DNA of 59,969 nt from Muribaculaceae bacterium (GTDB taxonomy: Bacteria; Bacillota; Clostridia; Lachnospirales; Lachnospiraceae), in the NCBI GenBank assembly GCA_023663465.1, contig JAMPHJ010000003.1:1-59969 (forward strand), given 5' to 3'. The position numbers and the translations under genes were made by a program. Position 1 is the stretch's first letter. Every line of letters begins with the position of its first letter. Below, one piece after another: positions 6,164 to 51,354 of the stretch. The notes beneath the pieces were generated by a model that worked only from the letters and a program-made list of their open reading frames with translations, had not been told where the DNA came from and did not search any database.

Positions 6164-6229
6164 ATCCCGTACTCCCTTGATTTCTGTTTTGAACTCTGCC
6201 ATAACTAAATAAGGCAATTACCCTTTAAA

Positions 6230-6370: not shown

Positions 6371-7780
6371 TTAATAAGCGTTTTTATTTATAAAACCTTT
6401 AAATATCGTCAAAAACATAATCTTAATATCAAAGGACAGGGTCCAGTTTTCAATATAAAAAATATCATGCTCAATCCGGCGTTTAATCGAAGTATCGCCC
6501 CGGTATCCGTTAATCTGCGCCCAGCCGGTCAGCCCCGGTCTTACCTGGTGTTTGACCATATATCTTGGGATTTCTTCTTTAAATTTCTCTACAAACTGCG
6601 GTCTTTCGGGTCTGGGTCCAACCACGCTCATATCCCCTTTTAAAATATTAAAAAGCTGGGGAAGCTCGTCCATGCTTGTTTTGCGCAACAGCTTACCCAC
6701 CCTGGTCACGCGGGGGTCGTCCTTCACGGTCCAGCCTTTTTTCTCCGTTCCCGGCTTCTGCACTTCCATCGTGCGGAATTTATACATTTCAAAAGGCTTA
6801 TTATGCAGACCGATGCGTTCCTGCTTGAAAATGACGGGACCTTTGCTGCTGCATTTAATCGCAATGGCGGATAGAATCATAATCGGGGAAAAAGCCACCA
6901 GCCCCACCAGCGAGACGACGATATCCACGGCGCGTTTCGTCACCCAGTTCAGTGTATTGGTCAAGGGCACATAGCGGATATTGACGACGGCAAGCCCCAT
7001 CAAATCCTCGGTATAGGGCCTGCTTGGGAACAGACTGTTATAATCGGGAATAAACTTCGTATGCACGCCCGATTTTTCACACATATCGACAATATATTCC
7101 AGCCGGTCATAATCATTCAAAGACAGGGTAATCGCAATCTCATCCAGCTTATTTTCGGGCAGGATATAAAGCAGGTTGCCGATGGAACCCACGACTTTTA
7201 CGCCTTTATACACCGTCCCCCTAGGCACGGAATCGTCTAAAATGCCGCGTACCACATAACCCCACTGGGGATTGGCGTTGATTCTTGTAATATATTCCTC
7301 CGCCGCCCTCGAATAACCGACTAACAGGATATATTTCAGATTATAACCTTTGCGCCGGAAATATTGGAGCAGGGTACGAATCAGCGAACGGCTTATCGTC
7401 GTAAAAAGAATGTTGATGATGTAGAATAATCCCATCATGGTACGGGAAAAGTCGTTCTGTTTTATAATGTACCAGCCCGCCATCAACAGGATGATACCTA
7501 CGGTATTTGCCTGAAAAATATTGAAAATCTCATATTTATGGACGGTTGCTCGTTTCGGAGTATACAGGTTGAAATAATAATATAGAATCACATAGCCCGG
7601 AACGATAAAATAGAGCAGCTCAAAATACGTCTGCATGGTCAGAACCCCTACATTCGGGGGAATATCGGTAAAAGGGCTGTCGAATTTCAAATACCACGCA
7701 AGCACATAAGAAATAGCCACGACAACCGCGTCTATTAAAACATGCAATCTATTAAAATATTTCTGGTTATCTTTTATCAT
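6371..7780 (-). CDS. Polyprenyl glycosylphosphotransferase (exopolysaccharide initiation)
   Basis: This 469-residue membrane protein should start glycan synthesis by moving a sugar-1-phosphate from a nucleotide sugar to undecaprenyl phosphate. It has four or five N-terminal membrane segments (within about 1-135), a Rossmann-like CoA-binding-3 domain (about 140-250), another membrane segment near 275-295 and the C-terminal bacterial sugar transferase domain. The hallmark motifs are KRAVDIVVSL, FKQERIGLHNKPFEMYKFRTM, DELPQLFNILKGDMSVVGPRPE and PGLTGWAQINGYRG. It is the WbaP/CpsE type with the full N-terminus rather than the short PglC type. GAGG lies nine bases upstream of the ATG, and the gene has its own promoter at 7870-7899. 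Donor specificity (glucose, galactose or an amino sugar) is not visible. Confidence 0.94.
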   Translation of the reverse strand: MIKDNQKYFNRLHVLIDAVVVAISYVLAWYLKFDSPFTDIPPNVGVLTMQTYFELLYFIVPGYVILYYYFNLYTPKRATVHKYEIFNIFQANTVGIILLMAGWYIIKQNDFSRTMMGLFYIINILFTTISRSLIRTLLQYFRRKGYNLKYILLVGYSRAAEEYITRINANPQWGYVVRGILDDSVPRGTVYKGVKVVGSIGNLLYILPENKLDEIAITLSLNDYDRLEYIVDMCEKSGVHTKFIPDYNSLFPSRPYTEDLMGLAVVNIRYVPLTNTLNWVTKRAVDIVVSLVGLVAFSPIMILSAIAIKCSSKGPVIFKQERIGLHNKPFEMYKFRTMEVQKPGTEKKGWTVKDDPRVTRVGKLLRKTSMDELPQLFNILKGDMSVVGPRPERPQFVEKFKEEIPRYMVKHQVRPGLTGWAQINGYRGDTSIKRRIEHDIFYIENWTLSFDIKIMFLTIFKGFINKNAY

Positions 7781-12265: not shown

Positions 12266-14335
12266 CTATGCGTTCATTTTCAAAGCAAAGTCACTTCTAT
12301 CCAGGGAAAAATTTGGATTATAATAGGGATCGCCCTTATCCAGCACATTTCGCCATTTTTCCCGGAAGCGCTCCGACTCCTCATTATAGCGCTGCGCCTT
12401 CTTCCCTTCCAGATCCGAGCCTCTGGATATCGACTCAAAATGATACAGCTCTGCAAAAGGGGTAAAAACATTCAAATACCCGGCGTCCCTCAGCCGCAGA
12501 CAGAAATCCACATCGTTTAAGGATACCGCAAATGTCTCATCCAGCCCCCCTAATTCTTCATAGAGCCTTTTTTCTACCATCAGACAGGCTCCTGTTACGG
12601 CGCTCACATTCTGGGCATAGCAAAGTCTTCCCATGTATCCTAGATTGTTACTACTGACACGGTAATGGGTGTGCCCCGCCGTCCTGTGCGCGCCCAGCCC
12701 GATGACGACGCCTGCGTGCTGAATGGTCCTGTCCCCATAATAAAGTTTCGCGCCTACCGCGCCCACATCTTCCCGCTGGGCATACATCAGAAGCTCTTCC
12801 ATCCAGTTTAACGTAATCACTTCCGTATCGTTATTTAGCAGAATCACATAATCGCCTGTGGCCTTGGAAACGCCCAGATTATTGATGCGGGAATAATTGA
12901 AATCGCCCTCATAGGTGACGATGCGAATCAGCCCGTTTTTACCTAGTTCCTCGTAATATCTGAAAATTTCCCCGGAAACGCTGTTGTTTTCCACAATAAT
13001 AATTTCATAATTGTCGTAACTGCTTTTTTCCAGAATGGACGTGACACACCGCTTCAAATCCCCGTAATGGTCTTTATTCGGAATCACGATGGAAATCTTC
13101 GGATTGCCCTGCAGCCCATATCGAATGCGGAAAATGGTTTCAAAGGCTTTCGTAGAAGAGATTTCAAAGTTCTCAAAGCCCTGACTCCGCAAATGGTCCG
13201 CCACCGCGCCCTTAGCGGCGTCTATAGCATAGCTCTTGGCGTTGATATCGGACGCCACGCTGCCCTTATGGGAACGCCAGTAGTATAACAGCTTCGGAAC
13301 GTGCACGACCTTTTTGGCTTCCGCGGTCAGCCGCAGTATCATATCGTGATCCTGGCTGCCGTCAAATTGGGAGCGAAACAACTGCGTCCCTTCCAGCAGT
13401 TTTCTGTCAAATACGCTAAAATGACAGATGTAATTATTCGCGCGCAGATTATCCACCGCAAAATCCGGCTTGAAATGCAGCGTAATCATGGAATCCACGC
13501 TGCCGCCATGAAATGTCGTCTCGTCGCAATAGACATAGTCTGCGCCCTCATCGCAGATTGCCTTCATATATTCAAACAAAACTGCCGGATGTAAGATATC
13601 GTCATGGTCAAAAAGCCCGATGTACTCCCCGGTCGCCATAGCAAGACATTGATTCGTATTTTCTGAAATGCCCCCGTTTTTCTCAAGTTTCCGGTATAAA
13701 ATGCGACCTTTTTCTCCCACAAGCTCCCTAAGCGCCGGATGGGCTTCTAAATAGACCGCGTCTTTTTCCACATAAGACCTGCACACCTGCTCCACATAAG
13801 TATGCTCCCCATCCGAGCCGTCCGCCAGACACAGTTCCCAATTTTCATAAGTCTGCGCAAGCACGGAATCAATTGCCTGTATCAGAAAATTCTTAGGCGT
13901 ATTGTATAGTGGCACCAGAATACTAATCTTTACCTTTTTTGGAAAAACGGCATTTCTCTGGCTTTCCCGCTCTTCCGGCGTAGGAAAACTTGCCGTTCCA
14001 TGCTGTTTCCTCGCTTTTTTCTCGATTCTTTTCGCATCTAATTTCCTGGCAATGCCTTTGATGCTGCCATAATAACCGATGCGCTCTTTCGTCCGCTGCA
14101 CCCAATGCACCGCAGCCCGAAGCGGCTTCGACAATTTCCAGAAAATGCTGCCCTTAATCCGGTTAAGCTTCCCCTCTAAGTCCGTCACCCGCCCCTGCGC
14201 GTCCGCCAGCTTCCCCGCCAACACCCGGCTCTTCTGCCGTTCTCTTTCGTATGCGTCTTTATAATATTGCAGGGAATCCTGCTGCCCTTCCTTCGGTTCC
14301 ATTTCTGTTTGCACTGCCTCTTCCTGCTTATCCAT
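12266..14335 (-). CDS. Giant two-domain family 2 glycosyltransferase
   Basis: The ~689-residue protein starts with a coiled-coil segment ending in the motif GSIFWKLSKPLR (shared with the next gene upstream). The first GT2 domain (about 145-400) has ISILVPLYNTP, NGGISENTN and LFDHDD. The second GT2 domain (about 425-690) has ISIVIPNKDH, YVILLNNDTEV, GAVGAKLYY and SLNDVDFCLRL. Two catalytic sites in one chain suggest a polymerising enzyme making a repeating disaccharide or alternating linkages. The preferred ATG at 14335 has GGAAGGAG about ten bases upstream, giving a 32-base gap after the upstream gene instead of an overlap. Linkages and donors are unknown. Confidence 0.9.
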   Translation of the reverse strand: MDKQEEAVQTEMEPKEGQQDSLQYYKDAYERERQKSRVLAGKLADAQGRVTDLEGKLNRIKGSIFWKLSKPLRAAVHWVQRTKERIGYYGSIKGIARKLDAKRIEKKARKQHGTASFPTPEERESQRNAVFPKKVKISILVPLYNTPKNFLIQAIDSVLAQTYENWELCLADGSDGEHTYVEQVCRSYVEKDAVYLEAHPALRELVGEKGRILYRKLEKNGGISENTNQCLAMATGEYIGLFDHDDILHPAVLFEYMKAICDEGADYVYCDETTFHGGSVDSMITLHFKPDFAVDNLRANNYICHFSVFDRKLLEGTQLFRSQFDGSQDHDMILRLTAEAKKVVHVPKLLYYWRSHKGSVASDINAKSYAIDAAKGAVADHLRSQGFENFEISSTKAFETIFRIRYGLQGNPKISIVIPNKDHYGDLKRCVTSILEKSSYDNYEIIIVENNSVSGEIFRYYEELGKNGLIRIVTYEGDFNYSRINNLGVSKATGDYVILLNNDTEVITLNWMEELLMYAQREDVGAVGAKLYYGDRTIQHAGVVIGLGAHRTAGHTHYRVSSNNLGYMGRLCYAQNVSAVTGACLMVEKRLYEELGGLDETFAVSLNDVDFCLRLRDAGYLNVFTPFAELYHFESISRGSDLEGKKAQRYNEESERFREKWRNVLDKGDPYYNPNFSLDRSDFALKMNA

Positions 14336-14367
14336 CCTGCCCTCACTCCTTCCTGTCAGAGCCTTTT

Positions 14368-16851
14368 CTATCCCTCTATCCTCATCCACACATCCGACCA
14401 GCCCAAAAACTTCCGATGACTAACGACATGCTCCGCCAGCATCCCAATTTTCCATACCCCGGAAGGCAGTTTTTCTTTCGGAAAACGCACGACAAAACCG
14501 GATAATGATATATTGACTTCATTAGTCAATATATCTTCCACGTCTGTCCGCAGCCAGGGAAAAGGATGAGCCGTATAAAATGTACCATCCTCACTCTGCA
14601 AAAGAATGCTCCTTTCATAGACGGCATTATCCATTCCCGGCAGGTAAGCCCAGCCTGTAATCGCCGCCAGTTCCGTATCTTCTTCATGGATTTTATGCTG
14701 CGCTCCGGCGCTGTCGATGGTGAGTTGCAGCATGCCCTGTATCGCACCCGCAAGACTGCTCGGATTCCCTGGCATGATATCCAGCGTTTTATCGCTCCGG
14801 TTACAATCCGCCTTAAAATTACAAGTGTATTTTAATCCGTCATCCAGCAGATTTTTATGATAAAACCTGTCCGCCCCTTTCATCGCAGGATGCTTGGCAT
14901 ACAATCTTTCCTTTTCCTGTAACAGTCTGCTCCACTTGCCCGTATCTTCCTCATCCAGTCCTCTGCTTAACGATTCATGATGATACAGTACCGCGTCGTT
15001 ACGCTGCACATTATAATATCCCGCCTCAATTAACTGAAAACAAAAGTCCACGTCGTTATAGGCAATCTTCATGGTCTCGTCCATACCGCCCACTTCCCGG
15101 TATTTATCCGCCTTGACAAGCAGACATGCCGCGGTAACGCCTATCATATCATAGGCAACCAGATTTCGTCCATAATAATAATTCCTATCATCCGCCAAAG
15201 ACGCCAGTTTATGCGACGGTCCAATCTCTAAATTGGTAATCCCCGCATGTTGAATGATTTCCGTGCCCGCATACCAGAGTTTGGCGCCCACCGCCCCTAC
15301 ATGGGGCTGCGCCGCCTGTCCAACCAGAATCCGCAGCCAGTCTTTCTGGAAAATCTCAATATCATCATTCAAGAGCAGCAGATACTCTCCCTTTGCCCTG
15401 CTTGCGCCTAAATTACACATGGCGGAAAAATTAAATTCCATCGGCTCATAGAGGTAACAAAACCCATATTCCTGCTGCAATAGCTCCATCCGCTTTTTAT
15501 TTTCTAAATTACTACCGTTATCTACTACAATCCACTCGTAATTGTCATAGTCTGTTTTTTCCCGAAAAGAAGAGAGGCACTCTTCTAATATGTCGGGGTG
15601 GTCTTTAGAAGGGATGATGACAGAAACCAGACCTGCCTTTCCCACACTGACACTACTGTCACAATTATTATTAGCAGCACCAAAACCGCCATTTTCACCT
15701 TCCACCTCATAAACCACATGATAAATATCTGAATCAGCGCCGGTTTCTAAATGCGCCCGGATTCCCCGCCGCTCTAACGCCGCTTCCCGCACGGCGCAAA
15801 ATGCGCTGCCGCTGCCTGTAAAATCATACCCTTTATCAAGGGCTTGCGATAATTGCGCTTCTACGGCTGCCAGAATGTCGGTGTCTGGCTGCCCTTCCCT
15901 CACAGCCGCCAGAGTTCCGCTATCCGGCTGCCCTTCCTTCTCACCTGCCCCTGACGCGCGCGTGCCCGGCTGTTCCAGAAGTTTCTCAGGTTCATAACGA
16001 TTGTGAAATAACACTTCTTCCATATGTCCGACCCGACGCTGTAGACGCGCCGCCAGTTCTTCCAGACGCAGACATAAATCATAGAAATCCTGATAGGTTC
16101 CTTTCTGATAACGTGCCTGTTCTATCAATTCATTGCATAACGATTGTTTTGCAATAAGCACATGCCCGATGTAACAGAAAGACAATAATGTGTCCGGCGA
16201 CCAATCGGGTTTATACCAAGGGCACATACGATTGGACAAATCCTGCCAGTAATAGTCCTCGTCACCGTAGGCAAACAGGCAATTTTCGTTTTTGTTAAAC
16301 CATGATTTGACATTTTCCGCCATTTGGGCGTCGAAAACACCATTTCCGCATAGAATCACGGTTAAGTCAGCGTCTGTCCAGTCTATTCTATGCCAGCCGT
16401 TGATTTCTATTTCAGAACGACTGTTTTCTTTCAGAGAACAACTGTTTTCTTTCAAAGAACCATCTGGTGCATTACGCTCGTTATTTTTATTTTCTTCCAA
16501 AGCGCGTGCATTCATTCCTTCTTCTGCCTCAATCCATTGCAGATAAGGGTGTCTCTGGGCAAATACTTCCTGCTGATAGTCCCGGATAGCCTGCACCGCT
16601 TTTTTATCCGCCTCGATATCGGGTTTTACCCTCTTTTTGCCAGTGAGCGCATAATAACATTTTCTCGCCGGGGCGGACAGTTTCCAGAAAATATTCCCTC
16701 GAATGCGCTCTAAGCGCAGCGCAAGGTCGGTTTCTTTCGCTTCCATGTCCGCAAGTTTCCCCGCCAGAACGATATTTTTCTTCTTTTCCTTTTCATAAGC
16801 AGCCCGATAATAGGACGCCCAGTCATATGCAGACGGTTTTTCTTTCATCAT
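14368..16851 (-). CDS. Giant glycosyltransferase with degenerate first domain and C-terminal beta domain
   Basis: The 827-residue protein has a coiled coil ending in RIRGNIFWKLSAPAR, an N-terminal GT2-like region (about 155-310) without a clear DxD, an intact GT2 domain (about 405-650: VSVIIPSKDH, LLLLNDDIEIF, GAVGAKLWY, AYNDVDFCFQL) and a ~120-residue C-terminal beta-rich domain (TGWAYLPGMD onward). Between the GT domains lies a hypervariable linker with two in-frame tandem repeats: a 21-base unit near 16423-16464 (KENS repeats) and a 14-residue unit near 15850-15935 (EGQPD repeats). The start ATGATG overlaps the upstream stop by four bases, so it is translationally coupled to the methyltransferase-kinase gene. 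It probably works on the same growing chain. Confidence 0.88.
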   Translation of the reverse strand: MMKEKPSAYDWASYYRAAYEKEKKKNIVLAGKLADMEAKETDLALRLERIRGNIFWKLSAPARKCYYALTGKKRVKPDIEADKKAVQAIRDYQQEVFAQRHPYLQWIEAEEGMNARALEENKNNERNAPDGSLKENSCSLKENSRSEIEINGWHRIDWTDADLTVILCGNGVFDAQMAENVKSWFNKNENCLFAYGDEDYYWQDLSNRMCPWYKPDWSPDTLLSFCYIGHVLIAKQSLCNELIEQARYQKGTYQDFYDLCLRLEELAARLQRRVGHMEEVLFHNRYEPEKLLEQPGTRASGAGEKEGQPDSGTLAAVREGQPDTDILAAVEAQLSQALDKGYDFTGSGSAFCAVREAALERRGIRAHLETGADSDIYHVVYEVEGENGGFGAANNNCDSSVSVGKAGLVSVIIPSKDHPDILEECLSSFREKTDYDNYEWIVVDNGSNLENKKRMELLQQEYGFCYLYEPMEFNFSAMCNLGASRAKGEYLLLLNDDIEIFQKDWLRILVGQAAQPHVGAVGAKLWYAGTEIIQHAGITNLEIGPSHKLASLADDRNYYYGRNLVAYDMIGVTAACLLVKADKYREVGGMDETMKIAYNDVDFCFQLIEAGYYNVQRNDAVLYHHESLSRGLDEEDTGKWSRLLQEKERLYAKHPAMKGADRFYHKNLLDDGLKYTCNFKADCNRSDKTLDIMPGNPSSLAGAIQGMLQLTIDSAGAQHKIHEEDTELAAITGWAYLPGMDNAVYERSILLQSEDGTFYTAHPFPWLRTDVEDILTNEVNISLSGFVVRFPKEKLPSGVWKIGMLAEHVVSHRKFLGWSDVWMRIEG

Positions 16852-18905
16852 TCAAATAATCCTTTTCTATGCATATGTTTCCCTGTCTCTGCCGGTATGC
16901 CCGTCACCTGCATGGACACCGTAAGCAGATTTTCCTGCCGCTGCTCTAAGTCCGATAACTGCAAGGTGATATTAGGGTCGTTAGCGGCAAACACATAGAC
17001 ATCTTTTCCGGTTTTCATACCATTTGTTATGATTCTTTTTCCCCGCAGGACAAGCGGCGTATCGTTCCATTTGATTTCCCGCAGCCAGACGATACAGGGG
17101 TCGTCGCCGGGGTCAATCCGAAGCGCCTTTCGCCCTTTCCCGACAGTAAGCTGAAATTCCTGCATGTTCTCTAAAGCTGCATCCTGCTCCAGGAAAAAGG
17201 ACTGTTCCTCCGTAAATCCATCGCCCGTATCTTCATAAATCTGTATCTGGTTTTTCTGTTGCTTTTGCATTACACCTGTTATTAATTCTTCTACCGTATA
17301 TACAGGCTGATTGATTGCCTCTCTGATTTCCGCCAATGCCATACGCTTTCCGGTAACATATTTCTGGAATTTCATTTCCTGTTCCCGGTAATGCTGCGCA
17401 TCTTCTTGGGTTACGCCCAATTTATGCAAAATTAAATCTAAATTTAATTTATTTCGTTTTTCATCCTCCAAAAGGTAACAATATACGGCACGAAAAGCGA
17501 TTTCCCTTGTTTCCACGGGCTTTTCATACGTCCATTCATAGTCTGTCACATGCCATTTTCCATCGTCAGATATGAGGATATTCGAGAAAACCAAGTCATA
17601 ATCTGTCACCGGCATCTCATCATGATACGCTATTTTCTCCAGATATTCGTCAAATAACGCATGAAATTTATCTATATCATTCCGCTCCAAGCACGCATCT
17701 AAGAGCTCCTGCAAGGTCGTTCCTTCTATATATTCAAAAGCCGCGTATGCGCCGTCCCCCTCTGGCAGACTACACCGGTTGATTTGTATCGCACCGCCCG
17801 CAAAGCGCTCTTTCAGCTTCTCATAATTCTGATAGAGCTGCCGGATATGACTGTGCGCTTCTTCTGATAACGCATGTTTTTCTATTTGCAGCATTGTCTT
17901 TCCCTCCGACTCCCGTTTCGTCAGAAGGGTCTTGATTTTATAAGCGTCCGTCCTGTCATTAGAATAGCGGGCATATTTCACCTCATGCTCCGTTCCCAAT
18001 ATCATCATATAAGAATTGGAAAATAAGGGAAAACAGCCTTCTTTGATAATCGTATCAAAAACGAGTTTTTCATTAAATAACAGTAGTCTTTCTCTATCAA
18101 AGTTCCGCAGATTAGACGACAGCTCGCCGGGTCTGGGCAGCCGCTCGTCCGAATACAGCGTCGTCATAAATTTGTAATCGGGATAGGGATAATACATAGA
18201 AATGTCTGAAAAGCCGCATTCCTTGGCTATCTTCATAAGACCGTCCTTCGTAAAAGTCCTGACAACGCCGCCTTCTGGATAATCTTCCAGACCGCTGAAA
18301 TAACTCCCTAGGTGGTCTTCTTTACAACCCGCCCAATATTTCAAGCCAAATTTATTCTCAATGGCAATCGCGATATGCCCTTCTTTCTTCTTATGTTTTG
18401 CGATAATCCGCAGAAAATCCTCATAAGGATGGGGAGAGTCAATATACGCCTGTCCATATTCAAAAACGCCAATCAGACAGATATAATCATAATCGCAGGG
18501 CAAATCCGGCTCGATATCCTGAAAATTGCCAACATGAATCGTCACATTCCCACAATCCATATGTCGATAGGCATTAATCATGCTTCTTTTCTTCGACAAG
18601 TCGATACAGGTCACTTCCCCCGCCTTCCTTGCCAAAGCCCCCGTAATCGCCCCGCAGCCAGAGCCGATTTCCAGCACTTTCATACTTTTATCGATGGGCA
18701 GCCATTCTATGATATTTTCCCGGAAAGTGGAAAGATGATAAAGAACTTCCCAGCTCTTTCTTTCCTCTATGATACGCGGGTATTCCACTTCGGCGTAGTT
18801 TCTGGCAATCTCAAGCAGATCGTCCTCCACGTCCCCGTCGCAATACTTATCCTCCCCCGGATAATGCTCCAAATCCAATTTGATTTTTCCAATTTCCTCT
18901 ATCAT
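16848..18905 (-). CDS. Methyltransferase-kinase fusion, WbdD-like glycan chain terminator candidate
   Basis: The 685-residue protein joins a class I SAM methyltransferase (about 45-240; SAM-binding VLEIGSGCGAITG, then CIDLSKK) to a protein-kinase-like/aminoglycoside-phosphotransferase-like domain (about 310-500). The kinase part has VTDYDLVFSNILI, which matches a catalytic loop with Asp and Asn, and VTDYEW at the DFG position. A helical segment rich in Gln/Lys and a beta domain (FQLTVGKGRKALRIDPGDDPC) follow. In E. coli O9a, WbdD has methyltransferase and kinase domains plus a coiled coil, and caps the glycan to stop growth; Wzt then recognises the cap. This gene sits next to wzt/wzm and overlaps the next glycosyltransferase by ATGA. 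Function by analogy is inference; AAAGGA precedes the ATG. Confidence 0.75.
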   Translation of the reverse strand: MIEEIGKIKLDLEHYPGEDKYCDGDVEDDLLEIARNYAEVEYPRIIEERKSWEVLYHLSTFRENIIEWLPIDKSMKVLEIGSGCGAITGALARKAGEVTCIDLSKKRSMINAYRHMDCGNVTIHVGNFQDIEPDLPCDYDYICLIGVFEYGQAYIDSPHPYEDFLRIIAKHKKKEGHIAIAIENKFGLKYWAGCKEDHLGSYFSGLEDYPEGGVVRTFTKDGLMKIAKECGFSDISMYYPYPDYKFMTTLYSDERLPRPGELSSNLRNFDRERLLLFNEKLVFDTIIKEGCFPLFSNSYMMILGTEHEVKYARYSNDRTDAYKIKTLLTKRESEGKTMLQIEKHALSEEAHSHIRQLYQNYEKLKERFAGGAIQINRCSLPEGDGAYAAFEYIEGTTLQELLDACLERNDIDKFHALFDEYLEKIAYHDEMPVTDYDLVFSNILISDDGKWHVTDYEWTYEKPVETREIAFRAVYCYLLEDEKRNKLNLDLILHKLGVTQEDAQHYREQEMKFQKYVTGKRMALAEIREAINQPVYTVEELITGVMQKQQKNQIQIYEDTGDGFTEEQSFFLEQDAALENMQEFQLTVGKGRKALRIDPGDDPCIVWLREIKWNDTPLVLRGKRIITNGMKTGKDVYVFAANDPNITLQLSDLEQRQENLLTVSMQVTGIPAETGKHMHRKGLFE

Positions 18906-18958
18906 CCTGCCATCCTTTATTTAACACCCGTTTTTATTCCTACTGTAAAAATATTCCC

Positions 18959-19165
18959 TAAATAATTGCGAAACTTGCATGAAAGAATGTGTAGTTGTAC
19001 AAAAGATACAACTCCATAAGCAGGTACTGTGAAAACGCCGGTACTTAGATGCCGCCCTTTGGCATCTTATGTACCGCTGCGTTTGAACCGTAGCGAGAGC
19101 GGGCCTGCGTTGGATTGTATCTTCTGTACAACGGACGCCCTCAACAACTTACCCTCGCAATCCTA
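18959..19165 (+). repeat. MITE-like intergenic repeat, copy A (full length, ~207 bp)
   Basis: The element lies between wzt and the methyltransferase-kinase gene. Its ends are related to those of copy B (TAAATAATTGCGAAAC at left; CGCAATCCTA at right, read inward as TAGGATTGCG). Inside are long inverted arms, GTTGTACAAAAGATACAA (18994 onward) against TTGTATCTTCTGTACAAC (to 19132), and an inner hairpin GGTACTTAGATGCC / GGCATCTTATGTACC. There is no coding capacity. The last three bases (CTA) are the stop codon of wzt on the minus strand. Copy B at 29369-29577 lies in the opposite orientation. Confidence 0.75.
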
Positions 19166-20431
19166 CCGCACCTGAATCCTCGTATTCATATCATAAAACC
19201 CAACCGTATCCTTATCCGATATCACCGTCAGGTTCATCACATCATACAACCGATGATACACCGTAAAATCATCGCCCTCATAGCCGGTCACACCAAGGGA
19301 CAGCAGATACTCGCCCCCCTGCAGGTTCATTTCCTGGGTAAAAGTGATTTCTTTGTGCTCGCCCGCCTTCACCGGATCCAAAAACGCCTTTTCAAACATC
19401 GTATTCGTTCCTGTAATTTCCGTGCCTTTGCTGTTTTTAATCGTAAAGGCAAAAACAGGAGCGGCGATATCTTCTACTACATCTACCATCATATGAATAT
19501 GAAACGTCGTGCCTTTTAATACGGCGGCGGTTTTCGTCCCCTTTTCATCCGTTATGAAATAATCGCTAATCACAGCTTTCTTGGAGCCGTATTCTAAGAG
19601 TTCAGGATTGACGTTTTTCCCTCCTGCTGCCAGAGCGCGTAACTGCTCATCTTCTAAAAGGCTTCCTTCGCTGCCATCTGGAATCGTATATTGCCCGACC
19701 AGCACCTGTTTATAAGCGTCAATCATTTCTTTTGGGTTGCCCTCCCCTAACTTGACGCCCTGATTAAGCAGCACGACTCTGTCACAGTATTTGCTGATAC
19801 TGCTCAAATCATGACTTACGAACACAATCGTCTTGCCCATCTGCTTAAATTCTTCAAATTTATGATAGCATTTTGCCTGAAAAAAAACATCTCCGACGGA
19901 AAGCGCCTCATCCACAATCAGAATCTCCGGGTCAATATTAATCGCCACGGCGAAAGCAAGCCGTACAAACATACCGCTGGAATAGGTTTTTACAGGCTGG
20001 CTGATATATTCGCCGATATCGGCAAACTCCAGAATCGCGTCCATCCTGTCGTCGATTTCTTTCTTGGAAAAACCAATCATCGTACCGTTGAGATAGATAT
20101 TCTCAATCCCGTTATATTCCATGTTGAAACCTGCGCCAAGCTCTAGCAGCGCAGAAATGCGCCCATTTACAGTCACGTTTCCTGCCGTCGGATTCAAAAC
20201 ACCTGTTATTATTTTGAGAATCGTAGATTTGCCCGAACCGTTTGTCCCAATGATGCCGACTGTCTCGCCCTGATGAATCGTCAGGTTCACGCCTTTTAAA
20301 GCATGGTGCTGCGTGTGGCGTTTCCCCCTGCCGAATCCCAGCGTTTCTTTCAGTCTGTCAGAAGGTTTGTTATATAATTTATATACTTTTTCCAGATTCT
20401 CTACCTGAATCGCAATCTTCTCGTCCGCCAT
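19163..20431 (-). CDS. wzt: Polysaccharide ABC exporter ATP-binding subunit with glycan-recognition domain
   Basis: The 422-residue protein powers export of lipid-linked polysaccharide. The N-terminal nucleotide-binding domain (about 1-245) shows Walker A GTNGSGKST, the variant signature YSSGM, Walker B ILIVDEALSV and the switch His in VFVSHDL. The C-terminal ~170 residues form a beta-sandwich Wzt-C domain, which in E. coli O9a/O8 binds the capped chain end. The cognate permease lies 12 bases upstream. The stop codon TAG is the first three bases, on this strand, of the repeat element A, so the insertion may have set the C-terminus (NTRIQVR). The neighbouring methyltransferase-kinase fits the cap-dependent version of this exporter. 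Confidence 0.93.
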   Translation of the reverse strand: MADEKIAIQVENLEKVYKLYNKPSDRLKETLGFGRGKRHTQHHALKGVNLTIHQGETVGIIGTNGSGKSTILKIITGVLNPTAGNVTVNGRISALLELGAGFNMEYNGIENIYLNGTMIGFSKKEIDDRMDAILEFADIGEYISQPVKTYSSGMFVRLAFAVAINIDPEILIVDEALSVGDVFFQAKCYHKFEEFKQMGKTIVFVSHDLSSISKYCDRVVLLNQGVKLGEGNPKEMIDAYKQVLVGQYTIPDGSEGSLLEDEQLRALAAGGKNVNPELLEYGSKKAVISDYFITDEKGTKTAAVLKGTTFHIHMMVDVVEDIAAPVFAFTIKNSKGTEITGTNTMFEKAFLDPVKAGEHKEITFTQEMNLQGGEYLLSLGVTGYEGDDFTVYHRLYDVMNLTVISDKDTVGFYDMNTRIQVR

Positions 20432-20443
20432 ATTGCTCTCCCA

Positions 20444-21481
20444 TTAAAGTACATCTGCAAAATGCACTCTCAGCTTTTTAAAAATCAGTGTCCCGATGCA
20501 GAAGAGGCTGATGGTAAAAATCCAGAAATAGGTGGAAGAATAAAAATGCTCCCAAAACCACACCTCTTCATAAATTGCGCTGCGATAGCCGTTTACGATA
20601 TATACCATCGGATTCAGCTTAAAAAGCGCTTTCATGGAATCTGTCGTCAACATAGAAATATCCCACAGAATCGGCGTTGCCCACATGCCAATCTGTAGGG
20701 CGATATTGATAATCTGTTGTAAATCCCTGATAAAAACAACAAGCGCACAGGTAAAATAACTCATTGCCAGCACCAGTAAAAATAAACAGAAACTATAGTA
20801 GAAAATCTGCAACGTATAGATGCTCGGATAATACCCGTACCCGATGGCTACCACCATCAGGATACAGACGAAAAACACATGGATAAAGGTCGCCGCAATG
20901 ACTTTGATAATCGGTAGGATACTGATATTGAAGACAACTTTTTTCACCAGATAATTATATTCTAACAGCGCCGTCGCGCCCTGGGTAATTGCCTCGGTAA
21001 AATAAAACCAGGGCACAAGCCCCGCCGTCAGATACAGCACATAGGGCACCTCTATCCCGCTCGCCACAAGCTGGCTCCTCGTATCGAACACCCTGTCAAA
21101 CACAATCCAGTACATTACAACCGTGACCACCGGCTGCGCCATCGCCCATACCACGCCCAGATAAGAACCCGCATACCGCTTTTTGAAATCATTTTTCGCA
21201 AGCTTCCAGATTAATTTCCGGCTCTGGAACAGCTCGATGGGAATCGTCGTCAGCCCATCGTAAAATAAGGCAAAAATCATACAGGTAAAAGCAATCAGAA
21301 GGCTTCCGCTGAATTTCTTCATATTTTCCGTCGCCTGGTCCGCCAACGGATTGTGATGTGTAATCAGCACAATCGCCAAAATCAGACCAAGCCCCCAGAA
21401 TATCGCGATTGCTGCGGGCTTTGGAAAAGATTTCCGTTTTTTATTATTATCTTCTTGTGTCACCGTATCCTTTGCGCTCAT
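20444..21481 (-). CDS. wzm: Polysaccharide ABC exporter permease
   Basis: The 345-residue protein has a non-standard extra N-terminal membrane pair (about 24-80), then the ABC-2 type core: KLIWKLAKNDFKKRYAGSYLGVVWA, the cytoplasmic gate helix of this family, and about six membrane segments. It forms the channel through which the lipid-linked glycan crosses the membrane. It stands between rfbC (22 bases upstream) and wzt (12 bases downstream), all in one transcription unit. The extra N-terminal segments make it roughly 80 residues longer than typical Wzm. Confidence 0.92.
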   Translation of the reverse strand: MSAKDTVTQEDNNKKRKSFPKPAAIAIFWGLGLILAIVLITHHNPLADQATENMKKFSGSLLIAFTCMIFALFYDGLTTIPIELFQSRKLIWKLAKNDFKKRYAGSYLGVVWAMAQPVVTVVMYWIVFDRVFDTRSQLVASGIEVPYVLYLTAGLVPWFYFTEAITQGATALLEYNYLVKKVVFNISILPIIKVIAATFIHVFFVCILMVVAIGYGYYPSIYTLQIFYYSFCLFLLVLAMSYFTCALVVFIRDLQQIINIALQIGMWATPILWDISMLTTDSMKALFKLNPMVYIVNGYRSAIYEEVWFWEHFYSSTYFWIFTISLFCIGTLIFKKLRVHFADVL

Positions 21482-21502: not shown

Positions 21503-22066
21503 CTATTTCCGGTATTTCTCAGTATATTCTGCAATGCCGCCCCATTCTTTATCTTTCTGGGACTGAATCAATTCCATTCCATCCTCTATGGGCCATTCGA
21601 TGCCAATCTCTGGATCATTCCAGAGGATTCCCCCCTCGTCGTTGGGATGATAAAACTCTGTACATTTATAAGCAAACTCGGCATAATCGGATAAAACAAG
21701 GAAACCGTGCGCAAAATTCTTCGGCACGAAAAACTGCTTTTTATTCTCTGCGGAAAGCAGTACGCCATGCCATTTTCCATAGGTTGCAGAACCCGGACGC
21801 AAATCCAGCGCCACATCATATACTTCCCCCTGCAGCACCCTGACAAGTTTATCCTGAGGATACTGAATCTGGAAATGCATTCCGCGTAAAACGCCCTTCA
21901 CCGATGCGGACTGATTATCCTGTACAAATACCTTATCGATACCCGCCGCTTTAAAATCCTCGTACTGATAGGTTTCCATGAAATAACCTCTTTCATCCTG
22001 GAAAACCTGCGGGGTGATAATCTTCAGCCCTTCTATTTCGCATGTTTCCACCGTTATTTTTCCCAT
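21503..22066 (-). CDS. rfbC: dTDP-4-dehydrorhamnose 3,5-epimerase
   Basis: The 187-residue length is typical for RmlC, which epimerises C3 and C5 of dTDP-4-keto-6-deoxyglucose on the way to dTDP-L-rhamnose. The cupin core shows FVQDNQSASVKGVLRGMHFQ with the catalytic His, YDVALDLRPGSATYGKWHG and the substrate-loop FAHGFLVLSDYAEFAYKCTEFY. It lies between the small GH25 gene and wzm on the same strand. RmlA and RmlB are nearby; RmlD (the reductase) is not in the window. Confidence 0.96.
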   Translation of the reverse strand: MGKITVETCEIEGLKIITPQVFQDERGYFMETYQYEDFKAAGIDKVFVQDNQSASVKGVLRGMHFQIQYPQDKLVRVLQGEVYDVALDLRPGSATYGKWHGVLLSAENKKQFFVPKNFAHGFLVLSDYAEFAYKCTEFYHPNDEGGILWNDPEIGIEWPIEDGMELIQSQKDKEWGGIAEYTEKYRK

Positions 22067-22107: not shown

Positions 22108-23475
22108 TTACTCCGCTTCCACCGGCGTATTTCCCGTATCCCCGTTGACGACCCCGGTATACCCACCCGAAGCTGCCGAGTGATCTACAGAAGTATCAAT
22201 ATTCAGATAACATAAGTTCAAATCCACGTTTGTTGAAATTCCTTCGATTTTCCCTTTCGACGTGTACTGCCACATATCATAATATCCCTCGTATGTGGGA
22301 ATGTCCGCATACTGCGCAAGCCATGTACGGTAATTGGACAAAGCGCTCATCTCCACTTCGCTCACAAGCCAGTTGGCGGAGCCGTAGATACCTGCCTGGT
22401 ATCCTGCAGAAGCGATGGTTTCCAGAAACGTCTTATGGTTCCTCGTCCGCTGCTCTTTCGCCAGTCCGTCCGCCCGTCCGCTGCCGCCCGTACTCTCGCT
22501 GTCTAGAAATACTGGATAATCTACGTCATATTTCCGAATCAGGTTAATCACCATACTCGCTTCTTCTATCGCTTCCACTTCATTGACTGCCTGCGTGAAA
22601 AAGTATACGCCGACTGGAATCCCCGCCTGAATTGCCCCCTCAATATTTTCGATATAAGTGGGGTCAATAATCAGCGCGCCGCTGGACAATCCACGATAAC
22701 CGCAGCGGATGATGGCAAATTCCACGCCGTCTGCTTTTACCGCTTCCCAATCGATGGTTTTATTCCATTTGGAAACGTCGATTCCCCTTCTGGCATTCTC
22801 ATGGGAATTGTCAAAAGAAGTATTTTCCGTGCCATCGGCTTCCTCATCCGCCTCTTTGGACGTCGTATCTTCTTTGGACGCATCTACATCCTGCTCGGTC
22901 AGCATCAGATATTCCACATCATCCAAAACCCGGTATTCCATTTCCTGTTTTACTTTAATGGTCGTCACCGTATTGGGCACTTTATAGCCTTCTATTTCAT
23001 TTAAATAAATGCTGTATTCGCCGGCACGGAGCTGGTCGATATAAATAATGCCGTCCTTATCCTTGTCGGTAAACTCCCCGACGCCCTGAATCGTCACTGT
23101 AAAAGCCGCCCCTGTTTCCAGCTTCCCGCGGCTGTTGACTATCATAATACGCAAATCTTTGGCTACCGAGCTCATGACAAGCGAGACCACTTTGCCGGAA
23201 TAGGTTTCAATACTCTTATAGCGGACTTCCGCATCAAAAAAAGTCTCATCCTGCATAAACGCAGAAAGATTATTTCCAAGCTGCCGCTCCCCGGTCATGG
23301 TTTCCACCGCTTCGGGCATTGTCCCGTCAGTTTCGCCCGCCTCTTCCGGCGCACCTGTATCAATGCCTAATTTTTCCAATACCGTTTCCCTATTTGCCGC
23401 AAATATAACGCCTGTTATTACAAGAAACATCAGCACGACGGCAATTAGAGTATTCCGTAATTTTTTAGAGTCCAT
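22108..23475 (-). CDS. Membrane-anchored GH25 muramidase-like protein (small)
   Basis: The ~455-residue protein has a short cytoplasmic head, one membrane segment (about 8-27), a ~110-residue beta domain with the phrase [20 protein letters not shown] (SpaA/carboxypeptidase-regulatory-like), an acidic linker, and a GH25 domain (about 235-435). The GH25 active site is intact: GIDVSKWN at the first strand, the D-x-E pair in VFLDSES and MWQYTSKG near the end. It should cut the glycan strand of peptidoglycan outside the membrane. The ATG at 23475 has AGAGG six bases upstream and overlaps the end of rfbA by 11 bases. It shares its beta domain and GH25 with the large protein at 25492. Confidence 0.9.
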
Positions 23476-24334
23476 TCGCAACCTCTACCAGATATTCTCC
23501 GTAATGTGTCTTCAACAGCGGTTTAGCAAGTTCCAACAGCTGCTCCCTGCTGATAAATCCTCTTTTATACGCAATTTCTTCAATACAGGAAATATAAAGC
23601 CCCTGCCTTTTCTGGAACGCCGCCACGAAATCCGCCGCATCTAACAGGGAATCATGGCTTCCCGTATCCAGCCATGCAAACCCCCGTCCCAGCGTTTCCA
23701 CCCGCAGGGTTCCTCGCCTCAGATATTCGTTGTTAATGCTGGTAATCTCAATTTCCCCGCGCGCCGAAGGTTTGACAGCCGCGGCAATTTCCACCACATC
23801 ATTATCATAAAAATAAAGCCCCGGAACCGCATAATTGCTCTTGGGATGCTCCGGTTTTTCCTCAATGGACAAAGCCACGCCGTTTTCATCAAATTCCACG
23901 ACGCCGTACTCTCTTGGGTCTCTGACATAATATCCAAAGATGGTCGCGCCTTTTTCCCTTGACGCCACTTCCCTTAACACCCTGGAAAAACTCTGTCCAT
24001 AGAAAATATTATCGCCCAGCACCAATGCCACGCTGTCTTTTCCGATAAACTCCGCGCCAATGATAAACGCATCCGCCAGTCCTCTCGGCGTTTCCTGCAC
24101 TGCATATTCGATGCGCAGCCCTAACTGTTCTCCCGTTCCGAACAATTCCCGGAAAGAGGGCAAATCCCTCGGCGTCGAAATAATTAGGATTTCCCGGATA
24201 CCTGCCAGCATCAGCGTCGATAGCGGATAATAAATCATCGGTTTATCGTACACCGGCATAATCTGCTTGGAAACCGCTTTCGTCAGCGGATACAGCCGCG
24301 TCCCGGAACCCCCTGCCAATATAATTCCTTTCAT
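23465..24334 (-). CDS. rfbA: Glucose-1-phosphate thymidylyltransferase
   Basis: The 289-residue enzyme makes dTDP-glucose from glucose-1-phosphate and dTTP. The signature [18 protein letters not shown] is the true N-terminus, with GGGAGAT just upstream; an upstream in-frame reading to 24376 is not supported. [21 protein letters not shown] and [10 protein letters not shown] follow as in RmlA. The gene lies 50 bases downstream of rfbB and overlaps the start of the small GH25 gene, so the three are one operon. Confidence 0.97.
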
Positions 24335-24384
24335 ATATAATCTCCCATTCTTACTCAGTCTGCGAATCCAGACCAACTTTCCCC

Positions 24385-25467
24385 TTACTTTCCCCGGTAC
24401 ATATCCTCATAATACTTCTGATAATCGCCGCTGGTTACATTCTTCATCCAGTCCTCATGTTCCAGATACCACTGAATCGTGCGCCGGATGCCTTCTTTGA
24501 ACATCGTTTCCGGCTCCCATCCGATTTCCGCGCTGATTTTATCCGGCGCGATGGCATATCTTCTGTCATGCCCTTTCCTGTCCTCTACATAAGTAATCAA
24601 ATCGTCGCTGACAAGCGCTTTGCGTGAATCATCGTCCGCCAACACTTCCCGCAGCGTATCTAAGATAATATGAATAATCTCAATATTCTGCTTTTCGTTA
24701 TGGCCGCCTATATTGTAAGTCTCATACAATCTGCCCTTTTCCTGCACCATGTCAATGGCTTTGGCATGGTCTTCCACATACAGCCAATCACGGACATTCT
24801 TACCGTCCCCATAGACCGGCAGTTTTTTCCCCTGCAGCGCATTGTTAATCATAAGCGGTATCAGCTTCTCCGGGAATTGATAGGGTCCATAGTTATTGGA
24901 GCAGTTCGTGATATTGGCGGGAAAGTGGTAAGTATCGATATAAGCCTTTACAAGCATATCGGAGCCCGCTTTGCTTGCCGAATACGGACTATGGGGCGCA
25001 TAGGGCGTGGTTTCGTAGAAATACTCCCCATCTTTTTCCAGGGAACCATACACCTCGTCCGTAGAAACATGCAAAAATTTCTTGTCTTCTTTGTACGCGC
25101 CGCCCGGCAGTTCCCATGCCGCCTGCGCACAGCTTAGCATGACCGCCGTGCCAAGCACGTTAGTCTGCACAAATACTTCCGGGTTTTTGATGCTTCTGTC
25201 CACATGGCTTTCCGCCGCAAAATGTACCACTCTGTCAATTTCATACTCCGCAAAAATCCGGCTGATAGCCTCTTTGTCGCAGATATTGGCCTTGATAAAA
25301 ATATAATTCGGTCTTTTCTCTACGTCCTCCAGATTCTCTAGGTTTCCCGCATACGTCAGTGCATCTACATTGATGATTCTGATTTCGTCACCATATTTCC
25401 CAAACATGTAATGAATATAATTGGAACCGATAAACCCGGCGCCGCCTGTTACAAGATAAGTTCTCAT
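24385..25467 (-). CDS. rfbB: dTDP-glucose 4,6-dehydratase
   Basis: The 360-residue extended short-chain dehydrogenase has the NAD-binding [13 protein letters not shown] at the N-terminus, [12 protein letters not shown], the catalytic STDEVYGSL and YSASK (Tyr-Lys pair), and [14 protein letters not shown]. It converts dTDP-glucose to dTDP-4-keto-6-deoxyglucose. It begins 24 bases after the large GH25 gene ends. The product can go to rhamnose (via RfbC and RfbD) or to other 6-deoxy sugars. Confidence 0.97.
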
Positions 25468-25491: not shown

Positions 25492-28400
25492 CTAATAATT
25501 CATATAACTGATGTTCATATCCACATTTCCGCTTATGCCGCCTACTTTTCCTTTGGAAGAATACTGCCACATATCATATCTGGTCGCGGTATAACTCGGC
25601 GTTGCGGCATACTGTGCCAGCCATATTTTATAGCCGGTCAGGCTGCCCGTATTGATGCGGGAAGTAAGCCATGTCTTATTGGCGTAAATGCCCGCCGCAT
25701 AACCCGAATTTTGCACGGTTGCGCAGAAAGCCTTGCAGACCGCCGTCCTTGTCGCCGTATCTATCTTGTCGCCCCGTCCGCCGCTGTCTTCCACATCCAG
25801 GAAAATAGGATAATTCAGTCCATAGCCTTTTACGAGATTCAACGCCATCGACGCTTCCTCAACGGCTTCCACTTCATTGACTGCCTGACTGAAGAAATAG
25901 ACCCCGACCTTGAGTCCCGCCGCCCTTGCGCCTTTGATATTGCTTGCAAACTTAGGGTCTTCAATCAATGCTCCCGTAGAAGAACCCCGATAGCCACAGC
26001 GGATAATCACATAGGATATCCCTGAATTTCTGACCGCGTTCCAGTCAATCGAGCCGTTCCACTTTGATACGTCGATGCCAAGGGATCCTGAACCGGAAGA
26101 AAGCCGTCCGTCGCTGCCAAACGTATATCTGGCTCCCTGAATGACCTGCTCCCCGGTCACATAATTGCCGTTTTTATCATAGAAATAAGTATATCCGTCT
26201 ATTGTCTGCCACCCGGTATAGCGGTATTTCGCAGTCTTGCTTTTCAGATAAAACTTCTGGCTTTTGTAGTAATCCGCATAAGTTGCTTCCACAAATTTAC
26301 CGTCACTGTTTTTGACATATACCTGATTGCCGCTCTTATCCTTTAATTTTGTTTTATTATCGGAAGAAACATCTTTTTCTTTTGTGACAGTTACTTTCCA
26401 TGTATTTTGGACATTCGCGCAGACGCCGGTAATGGTCGCCGTTCCCACTGACACGCCTGTCATATTTCCACTGCCGTCTATTTTTACAATCTTCTCATCG
26501 CTGCTTGTCCAGGTAACGATGCCCCCCGCCGGATCCGTCGTTCCTTTGACGGAACCTGTTTTTCCAACCTGTATCGTAGCGCTGCCCGTTATCGTCAGGG
26601 ATTTGTAAGTCACTTCTTTTTCCACGACTGTAACGGAACATTCTTTATAGTCGCCGCTGTTGCTCGTGCCACGGATAAGCGCGGTCCCAACTGACAGACC
26701 TGTCACAATTCCTTTTGCATCTACCACGGCTATATTGGTATCGCTGCTGGTCCATGTAATGACGCCGCCTTCCGGCTCTGTCGTTCCCTTGACATTGCAG
26801 CTCTTGCCAACCTGTATCGTCCCGCCGCCTTCGATGCTTTTGATACGATATTCCTGGTCTGGATTCGTGGGCTTTGCCGGATCTGTCGGATCTTTTGGTT
26901 TCTCCGGATCCGCCGGATTATCTGGCTCTGCCGGAGCAGCCGCCCCGCCCCCGGTAACGTGAACGGCACAGGTAATTTGTTTAGAAGCTGCTGATTCCGG
27001 GTTCTCACCTACTGTAATCGTTGCCGTAATCGTAGCGTTACCGCTTCCTACCGCCGTAACGACGCCGCTGCTGACGCTTGCTACAGAAGTATTACTGCTT
27101 TCCCAGCTAATCTGATAGGATAAGCCCGACGAAACGGAAACCGAAAGACTCACGCTTGCCGCCTTCGACATATCTATCTCTACAGAAGATGGCTCCAACA
27201 CCGGATTCAGCGCTTCCAATCTCTTCTCATTGCGCTCCTTGTCCGTCATTTCTTCCACTTCCGCGGAACCTGTCTCACTTGTCACAGTGGCGACAAGCTT
27301 CCTAAAACCGCTCAGCTTCCCGATTGTAGAAGGGTCGGGAATATCCGCTTTATTCATTTCCTTATAATTTTCTTCGGATTCTATCTCCGTCTTGGTAGAT
27401 TCCACCCATTCCACAGTATCCGTCAGTGCGGATTCCGTTTCCACCGGTTTCGCCGTATCTTCCGCCGCCGCATTGACTTCCGCTTCCGACTTAATTTCGT
27501 CGGCAACATCTACTTTCTTATAGGCAATCTTATCCGTAACCTTGACGGTATTTCCCTGCGTCGGCAATTGGTATTTCCGGTATTCTTCACCTTGCAGCGC
27601 AACTACTTTAACCGTATAAGTATCTGCATCAACATCCGTCTGATAAATGATACCATCCTTATCCTCATCTATCAAATGGAAAGTCTTGTTTCCGCTTCCG
27701 TTAACTTCCACTTCAAAAGGCACGCCGCCAATCAATTTTCCTGTCTTGACGTTCACGAACTTGATTTTCATATCCGACAGGATAGAAGTAATGTTCATGC
27801 CGACCTCTATGGAAGTATCCTCTACCACTTCTTCCGGTTTATCTTCCGGCTCTTCCTGCTCTGTATCCATCATATGGGACAATCTTGCCGCTTCTGCATT
27901 GGAAACCGCCAGAAGTCCGCTCTCGCCGATTACGCCGATATTTTCTATTTCCGTTCCCACTTCCGCAAAAGCTTCCAGCTGCTTAGATTCCGACTTCGAT
28001 CCGAAATAAAGAACACCCGTTATCACCGCCGCTATCAGGATAAAACAGCCGAATAATGCAACAGCCCTGTCAAGCGCACTCATATCTGCGATAAAATTAC
28101 CTATGCGGGCAAAGATATTGTCTGAGGCATACTTATCATATTCGTATTCTTCCTCATCTTCGTACTCGTCGTCCTCATATTCTTCATCTTCGTCGTACTC
28201 GTCTTCTTCATATTCTTCATCTTCGTCGTACTCGTCTTCTTCATATTCTTCGTCTTCGTCGTACTCATCTTCTTCATATTCTTCTTCGTCGTCGTACTCG
28301 TCTTCGTATTCCTCGTCCTCGTCGTACTCATCGTCCTCGTATTCCTCGTCGTCGTACTCGTCGTCCTCATATTCTTCTTCGTCGTATTCCTCGTCTTCTA

Positions 28401-28569: not shown

Positions 28570-28635
28570 AATCTTCCGTAACCTTTCGTTGTATTTTATG
28601 TGAGATGCGTAATATACGCTTCTCACATACACCCG

Positions 28636-51230: not shown

Positions 51231-51354
51231 GCTCCTTATCTGTTATATTCTACCATAAAGGATAAATTTGTGCATCATCTTATTCTTTTTTGGTCCAATT
51301 TGTGGTAAACTCTTAGAAGGGTTTATGCAAACTGCCCAGATTGGAGTTTTCATT

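What the first reader, a model, noticed from the sequence alone, without database searches (positions are those of the whole stretch)
16848..20431. A WbdD-like methyltransferase-kinase next to a Wzt with a recognition domain in a Gram-positive locus
The gene at 16848-18905 fuses a SAM methyltransferase (VLEIGSGCGAITG) with a kinase-like domain (DLVFSNILI and TDYEW at the catalytic-loop and DFG positions). This is the layout of E. coli O9a WbdD, which caps the growing glycan; Wzt's C-terminal domain then reads the cap. Here it is followed by coupled giant GT2 enzymes and preceded by wzt with an extra C-terminal domain, with LCP and GH25 genes in the same locus. This would be cap-dependent chain-length control of a wall polysaccharide in a Lachnospiraceae-type bacterium, a system I do not know to be described. 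Function rests on analogy.
Basis: partly seen in the sequence, partly recalled or inferred. Interest (0 to 1): 0.78.

Follow-up and report, generated by a model that had tools for sequence, protein, structure and literature searches.

The report
Sugar-chain capping enzyme in gut bacteria
A gut bacterium of the Lachnospiraceae carries a two-part enzyme, related to one that a Gram-negative bacterium uses to cap and stop a growing surface sugar chain, next to the pump part that would recognise the cap; many relatives carry the same pair, which suggests that capped wall sugars are common there, though no activity has been tested.

Summary
The nearest characterised relative is not WbdD but Klebsiella O7 ORF6 (JBC 2024), which makes a methyl-phosphate cap on terminal rhamnose. 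I lacked its sequence; the link runs through a Pseudomonas protein that has all six published SAM-site residues at identical numbers and matches P0001 over residues 21-658 (25%, E 1e-36). In 200 Lachnospiraceae genomes 100 of 103 carriers also have Wzt_C; 96 of 100 high-scoring Wzt_C lie within 8 kb of the enzyme, 1 of 36 low-scoring ones. R-x-Y-D stands where Aquifex Wzt stacks a Trp on its methyl cap: 79 of 79 linked domains, 15 of 16 more, 1 of 36 low-scoring. Best reading: a methyl-phosphate cap on a wall rhamnan licenses export. Not shown: any activity, the cap, length control, wall linkage. No coiled-coil ruler was found; outside the family only 3 of 8 carriers have Wzt_C beside the enzyme.

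The parts
16848..18905 (-). Methyltransferase-kinase-beta-domain protein (P0001, 685 aa; MTK), proposed chain terminator
18006..18905 (-). Methyltransferase domain, residues 1-300 (boundary approximate)
   Evidence: Pfam above cut-off within 64-235; coordinates
17316..17993 (-). Kinase-like domain, residues 305-530 (boundary approximate); D437 at 17595-17597, N442 at 17580-17582, D455 at 17541-17543
16896..17273 (-). C-terminal domain, residues 545-670, candidate carbohydrate-binding module
   Evidence: BLAST alignment to the P. asturiensis protein runs on to residue 658; fold not tested
19163..20431 (-). wzt, ABC transporter ATPase with C-terminal Wzt_C domain (422 aa)
   Evidence: Pfam Wzt_C E 1.3e-40; best solved relative Aquifex Wzt 8dku
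19184..19618 (-). Wzt_C cap-recognition domain; HRLYD (R394) at 19241-19255
20444..21481 (-). wzm, ABC transporter permease
   Evidence: Pfam ABC2_membrane
14368..16851 (-). GT2 glycosyltransferase (827 aa); start overlaps terminator stop by 4 nt
12266..14389 (-). Two-module GT2 glycosyltransferase (707 aa); 37% over 559 aa to the GT half of the fused Pseudomonas protein
21503..22066 (-). rfbC/rmlC
   Evidence: Pfam dTDP_sugar_isom
23465..24376 (-). rfbA/rmlA
   Evidence: Pfam NTP_transferase; gene name recalled
24385..25467 (-). rfbB/rmlB
   Evidence: Pfam GDP_Man_Dehyd/Epimerase; gene name recalled
22108..23481 (-). GH25 muramidase-family protein
25492..28632 (-). Large GH25 protein with acidic repeats and Big_2 domains
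6371..7780 (-). WcaJ-type undecaprenyl-phosphate sugar transferase (initiation)
   Evidence: TIGR03023 above cut-off
4988..6217 (-). LCP transferase (attachment to peptidoglycan)
   Evidence: Pfam LytR_cpsA_psr; TIGR00350 above cut-off

Best explanation
P0001 is a Gram-positive relative of the Klebsiella O7 ORF6 chain terminator. A rhamnose-containing wall polymer is started by the WcaJ-type transferase and grown by the GT2 enzymes on the lipid carrier in the cytoplasm. The kinase domain then phosphorylates the terminal sugar and the methyltransferase methylates the phosphate. This cap stops growth, and Wzt_C binds it so that Wzm-Wzt exports only finished chains, which LCP attaches to peptidoglycan. 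Shown here: domain homology, conserved catalytic residues, operon order, co-occurrence with Wzt_C. Inferred: cap chemistry, cap recognition (R394 as phosphate ligand), length control, wall attachment.
For: Profile-profile match to a set of eight sequences led by the Pseudomonas asturiensis MT-kinase-GT2-GT2 protein, E 1.1e-80 over residues 20-572; the Pseudomonas protein alone matches residues 21-658 at 25%, E 1e-36. Kinase part alone 98.9% probability, E 2.9e-17; 20 column-shuffled controls at 0.4% or less. SAM residues published for ORF6-O7 (Y28, Y66, G91, G93, E112, Y158) fall at the same numbers in P. asturiensis and at Y21, Y56, G81, G83, D102, Y150 in P0001; D441 corresponds to D443 and D437. 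The order rml genes, wzm, wzt, MTK occurs on a Citrobacter plasmid, with a transposase gene between rml and wzm, and wzm-wzt-MTK on the Pseudomonas plasmid. wzm-wzt(Wzt_C)-MTK in 72 of 74 readable loci. Wzt_C in 100 of 103 carriers against 18 of 97 non-carriers. R-x-Y-D in 79 of 79 linked Wzt_C, 15 of 16 more and 1 of 36 low-scoring ones. rmlD lies elsewhere in the genome. LCP, WcaJ-type transferase and GH25 are in the locus.
Against: No activity is shown and the fold could not be predicted. The ORF6-O7 sequence itself was not available; the link is through a Pseudomonas protein and published residue numbers. The Citrobacter relative has Glu in place of the second Asp. No coiled-coil ruler in P0001 by a crude scan. 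Carriers without Wzt_C beside the enzyme: three Lachnospiraceae genomes (G076, G186, G188), and five of the eight other Bacillota: one with a 258-aa Wzt, one with a 481-aa Wzt without a Wzt_C match, three without any Wzt seen in the stretch fetched. LCP was seen in only 1 of 57 fully flanked loci, but in the window it lies just over 10 kb from the enzyme, outside the flank looked at. Operon co-inheritance could give the correlation without cap reading.
Confidence: 0.66

Rival explanations
1. The enzyme adds methyl-phosphate or phosphate as an ordinary decoration inside the polymer or on side chains, and Wzt_C reads the polymer itself; there is no cap-gated export.
For: In G076, G186 and G188 the enzyme occurs in genomes without a Wzt_C match, beside other glycosyltransferases, and five of eight other Bacillota carriers have no Wzt_C beside it. 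No coiled-coil ruler in P0001.
Against: The enzyme is next to Wzt_C in nearly all Lachnospiraceae carriers, and its characterised relative acts on the non-reducing end.
Confidence: 0.17
2. The kinase domain is inactive or serves only as a scaffold; the cap is a plain O-methyl group, as in E. coli O8 or Geobacillus WsaE.
For: Pfam Pkinase stays below its cut-off, and only 3 of 40 members match it at E 0.01. The Citrobacter relative has Glu at the second Asp. Plain methyl caps exist in related systems (PMC3482155, PMC2943079, passages).
Against: The catalytic Asp, Asn and Asp are kept in 80 of 80 loci and in 18 of 20 further loci that I chose. An Arg takes the place of the methyl-stacking Trp in linked Wzt_C.
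Confidence: 0.1
3. The association is only genetic hitch-hiking: a conserved operon for a wall rhamnan in which the terminator and Wzt_C have unrelated roles.
For: Correlation within an operon cannot prove interaction. RmlA, RmlC, Wzm and GH25 are just as constant (57 of 57 loci).
Against: The order wzm-wzt-MTK is shared with Pseudomonas and Citrobacter plasmids, and it is the high-scoring Wzt_C kind, not Wzt_C in general, that sits beside the enzyme.
Confidence: 0.07

Closest known systems
Klebsiella pneumoniae O7 ORF6 terminator (PMC11231755)
   Same: Methyltransferase, then kinase, then a proposed CBM; corresponding SAM and catalytic residues; ABC-transporter pathway with rhamnose
   Different: ORF6 is one polypeptide with a coiled coil and two GT2 modules; here the terminator is separate, no coiled coil was found in it, the GT2 modules are in the next genes, and the locus is Gram-positive with LCP and GH25
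E. coli O9a WbdD with Wzt-C (PMC3482155, passages)
   Same: Order methyltransferase-kinase; partner Wzt with a C-terminal recognition domain
   Different: Its kinase is described as different from the O7 type (PMC11231755); WbdD has a C-terminal coiled coil and recruits a mannosyltransferase; WbdD was not among the 60 of 94 PDB matches shown
Geobacillus stearothermophilus WsaE with Wzt (PMC2943079, passages)
   Same: Gram-positive, rhamnan, terminal modification proposed to stop growth and be read by Wzt
   Different: 2-O-methyl cap; the passages describe a methyltransferase and two glycosyltransferase domains, no kinase; S-layer protein glycan. Sequence not compared here
Xanthomonas WxcB (PMC4878081, passages)
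   Same: Similarity to methyltransferase and kinase domains of WbdD, in a poly-rhamnan O-antigen locus; an Xcc mutant lacks O antigen
   Different: Gram-negative; function called obscure, a polar effect was not excluded, and a mutant of another Xanthomonas showed no LPS change; sequence not compared here
Aquifex aeolicus Wzt-CBD (PMC9445017, passages)
   Same: Closest solved Wzt by sequence; Asn313 corresponds to N343, conserved in at least 95%
   Different: Trp362, which stacks on the methyl cap, corresponds to R394 here

Membership tests
Klebsiella O7 ORF6-type terminator | Methyltransferase with the published SAM-site residues | tested here: met
   Y21, Y56, G81, G83, D102, Y150 correspond. 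Y21, Y56, G81, G83 and Y150 are invariant in the 40-sequence alignment; in the 14-sequence one Y21 and G83 are at 90% or more, and position 102 is D or E
Klebsiella O7 ORF6-type terminator | Kinase-like domain with catalytic Asp (D441) | tested here: met
   D437 by homology through P. asturiensis D443; activity and fold not tested
Klebsiella O7 ORF6-type terminator | Ig-like CBM after the kinase | tested here: inconclusive
   Sequence match to P. asturiensis continues to residue 658; fold not tested
Klebsiella O7 ORF6-type terminator | Coiled-coil ruler in the terminator | tested here: not met
   None found in P0001 by a home-made heptad scan; the scan is crude and found a coil-like stretch in only 5 of 8 fused relatives
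Klebsiella O7 ORF6-type terminator | GT2 polymerase modules joined to the terminator | tested here: not met
   Separate here; P0003, two genes on, is 37% identical over 559 aa to the GT2 pair of P. asturiensis, and other Lachnospiraceae have fused forms. The ORF6 paper says some orthologues end after the coiled coil
Klebsiella O7 ORF6-type terminator | Makes methyl-phosphate on terminal rhamnose | not testable with these tools
   needs enzyme assay and NMR
E. coli O9a WbdD | N-terminal methyltransferase followed by kinase | tested here: met
E. coli O9a WbdD | Kinase of the WbdD type | tested here: inconclusive
   94 PDB matches, 60 shown, none named WbdD; WbdD sequence not at hand for a direct comparison
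E. coli O9a WbdD | C-terminal coiled coil | tested here: not met
   crude scan
Cap-reading Wzt (Wzt_C) | C-terminal Wzt_C domain fused to the ATPase | tested here: met
   Pfam 139.2 bits, cut-off 30.4
Cap-reading Wzt (Wzt_C) | Binds the terminal modification | not testable with these tools
   R394 and N343 are candidates only

The most novel reading that the evidence does not exclude
About half of Lachnospiraceae genera make a wall rhamnan whose chains end in a methyl-phosphate cap that both stops growth and opens the exporter. Its Wzt_C has an Arg that reads the phosphate where Aquifex Wzt has a methyl-stacking Trp, and the ruler has been moved out of the terminator polypeptide. Within the searches made here this would be the first methyl-phosphate-capped, quality-controlled wall polymer of Gram-positive bacteria.
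Probability: 0.42. Interest if true: 0.8.

Novelty: new variant of a known kind. Interest (0 to 1): 0.6.

Why it matters
If true, a quality-control step known from Gram-negative O antigens is a common feature of wall polysaccharides in a large gut family. It names a terminator, a reader and a testable residue (R394), and it would let the chain length of a gut commensal's surface glycan be studied through one gene. It would also give a function to a gene that no curated family model names as a whole and that half of the sampled genera carry.

Tried and rejected
Tried without result: structure prediction (switched off), so no fold search was made. E. coli genomes hold no near match to the Citrobacter wzm-wzt-MTK-GT stretch. 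Eight literature searches (open-licence PMC papers only): as far as the listed titles, abstract beginnings and the passages I opened show, none reports an O7-type methyltransferase-kinase in a Gram-positive wall locus. Subscription papers and preprints were not covered.

An apparent Wzt-terminator fusion in L053 looked like direct evidence of coupling. Its sequence has N at the junction and two close relatives (L042, L044) have a stop there, so it was rejected.

Rows dropped. The co-occurrence count used matches at about E 3e-10 or better; nine genomes with weaker matches (2e-9 to 8e-4) were left out. With them, 103 of 112 carriers have Wzt_C over cut-off, and six of the nine do not. One of the nine, G081, has the enzyme in a 1141-aa fusion. 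Secondary segments of a match and seven Wzt_C rows below the Pfam cut-off were left out too.

Of the 36 low-scoring Wzt_C, the one with R-x-Y-D (L146) scores as the linked kind (167 bits) and lies about 3 kb from an enzyme gene. At the single column of R394 (labelled one too low) 25 of 36 were gaps and 3 of the other 11 had Arg, so the four-residue pattern over whole sequences is the count I use. Among 16 further linked Wzt_C, L130 lacks R-x-Y-D. The match of R394 to Aquifex Trp362 was read by eye from the alignment, whose chain numbers run one above the paper's.
Full report
Observation. The gene lies at 16848-18905 on the minus strand and encodes 685 aa. Within residues 64-235 several methyltransferase families match above cut-off; residues 314-456 match Pkinase weakly, below cut-off. 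Reading 5' to 3' the block is: large GH25, rfbB, rfbA, GH25, rfbC, wzm, wzt with Wzt_C, this gene, GT2 (827 aa), two-module GT2 (707 aa), phosphoglucomutase, two GT2, WcaJ-type transferase, LCP, GT2, glmS-like (translations; families; some gene names recalled). I saw no rmlD in this run of genes; a strong RmlD match is on another contig (E 1.9e-94), so L-rhamnose synthesis looks complete.

Is it a kinase? The fold could not be predicted. A profile of the kinase region from 40 sequences finds eukaryotic-type kinases in the PDB, best GCN2 E 4.1e-5, with the catalytic loop aligned. The Asp-x4-Asn...Asp-x-Glu-Trp pattern is present in 80 of 80 named loci: 77 by pattern, and the other three with a longer insertion. 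The Citrobacter relative has Glu for the second Asp.

What family? The library held one decisive paper, PMC11231755 (passages, section 11 part 1). Klebsiella O7 ORF6 is methyltransferase, an unannotated kinase with Asp441, a CBM, a coiled coil and two GT2 modules; it was shown there to make methyl-phosphate on O3 of terminal rhamnose. Its authors call the kinase quite different from WbdD's and name orthologues from alpha- and gammaproteobacteria and cyanobacteria. I could not obtain its sequence. tblastn over plasmids with P0001 found two records: a Pseudomonas asturiensis protein of 1457 aa (25% over residues 21-658, E 1e-36) and a Citrobacter braakii protein of 649 aa (residues 21-253, E 3e-28). 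The Pseudomonas protein has tyrosines at 28, 66 and 158, glycines at 91 and 93 and Glu112, the same numbers as published for ORF6, and an Asp at 443. Its GT half matches P0003 of the window at 37% over 559 aa. The Lachnospiraceae profile aligns with a set of eight sequences led by this protein (it, Citrobacter and six other Bacillota) at E 1.1e-80 over residues 20-572. The kinase part alone gives 98.9% and E 2.9e-17, against at most 0.4% in 20 column-shuffled controls. So P0001 plus P0003 looks like a split form of an O7-type terminator-polymerase. In several other Lachnospiraceae and in one other Bacillota locus terminator and GT2 parts are fused.

Co-occurrence with Wzt_C. In 200 Lachnospiraceae genomes (compared) 103 carry the enzyme at the cut used, 118 carry Wzt_C over cut-off, and 100 carry both; 18 have Wzt_C only, 3 the enzyme only, 79 neither. 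The genomes are related, so the Fisher value of 1.3e-33 is only a guide. Of 100 Wzt_C domains above 130 bits, 86 have the enzyme immediately downstream and 96 within 8 kb. Three of the other four have it on another contig and the last, G081, has a fused form. Of 36 domains at or below 130 bits, none has it immediately downstream and one has it within 8 kb. In the capped list of Wzt matches, eight have reading frames under 320 aa, and none lies within 8 kb of an enzyme match (checked by eye). In 80 named loci, 74 had enough upstream DNA: 72 are wzm-wzt(Wzt_C)-enzyme, one has a GT gene inserted, one is an assembly artefact. In 57 loci with full 10-kb flanks RmlA, RmlC, Wzm, Wzt_C and GH25 occur in 57, RmlB and phosphoglucomutase in 52, the WcaJ-type transferase in 37 and LCP in 1; in the window LCP is just over 10 kb away, so this flank cannot judge it.

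A clue to what Wzt_C reads. In Aquifex the cap is a 3-O-methyl sugar and Trp362 stacks on it (PMC9445017, passages). The alignment, read by eye, puts R394 of this Wzt at that Trp and N343 at Asn313. Arg-x-Tyr-Asp is present in 79 of 79 linked Wzt_C, two of them from Pseudomonas and Citrobacter, and in 1 of 36 low-scoring ones. In 16 further linked ones it is present in 15. An Arg there would suit a methyl-phosphate; this is inference.

Limits. Across 398 Bacillota genomes drawn evenly, 12 have a match at E 1e-10: four Lachnospiraceae and eight from seven other families. Of those eight, three (G409, G418, G581) have Wzt_C beside the enzyme. One has a 258-aa Wzt (G348), one a 481-aa Wzt without a Wzt_C match (G249), and three show no adjoining Wzt in the stretch fetched (G398, G510, G516; G510 on a 6-kb contig). 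In the family G076, G186 and G188 have the enzyme and no Wzt_C match. In such cases the enzyme may decorate rather than cap. No coiled coil was found in P0001 by a crude scan; coil-like stretches were found in 5 of 8 fused relatives and in the Pseudomonas and Citrobacter proteins.

Novelty. Cap chemistry and cap-gated export are known in Gram-negative O antigens; a methyl cap read by Wzt was proposed for a Geobacillus S-layer glycan (PMC2943079, passages). What appears new, within the eight searches listed above, is an O7-type terminator with its reader in Gram-positive loci, here with LCP and GH25, in about half of the Lachnospiraceae genera sampled.

Noticed in passing
25492-28632: A 1046-aa GH25 protein with a long acidic repeat (28084-28449), Big_2 domains and a choline-binding-type repeat; GH25 genes are present in 57 of 57 fully flanked homologous loci.
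   Followed up: partly
18906-19162: A 257-nt gap between wzt and the terminator gene inside an otherwise tight operon.
   Followed up: no
L190, L191, L192 (G076, G188, G186): The methyltransferase-kinase occurs where the genome has no Wzt_C match, beside other glycosyltransferases; it may have a non-capping role there.
   Followed up: partly
L163, L166: Two unlinked Lachnospiraceae Wzt_C domains have a Cys-Trp pair near the position of the Aquifex methyl-stacking Trp; they may read a plain methyl cap.
   Followed up: no
L053:8570-12094: Apparent Wzt-terminator fusion, an artefact of ambiguous bases.
   Followed up: yes
31756-33228, 49689-51230, 51268-52800: Three proteins that look by eye like MBOAT acyltransferases, with SGNH-like neighbours; recalled resemblance, no family search made.
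   Followed up: no
L145: The C-terminal beta-domain profile also matches two other proteins of this locus, so the domain may be shared by several glycan enzymes.
   Followed up: no
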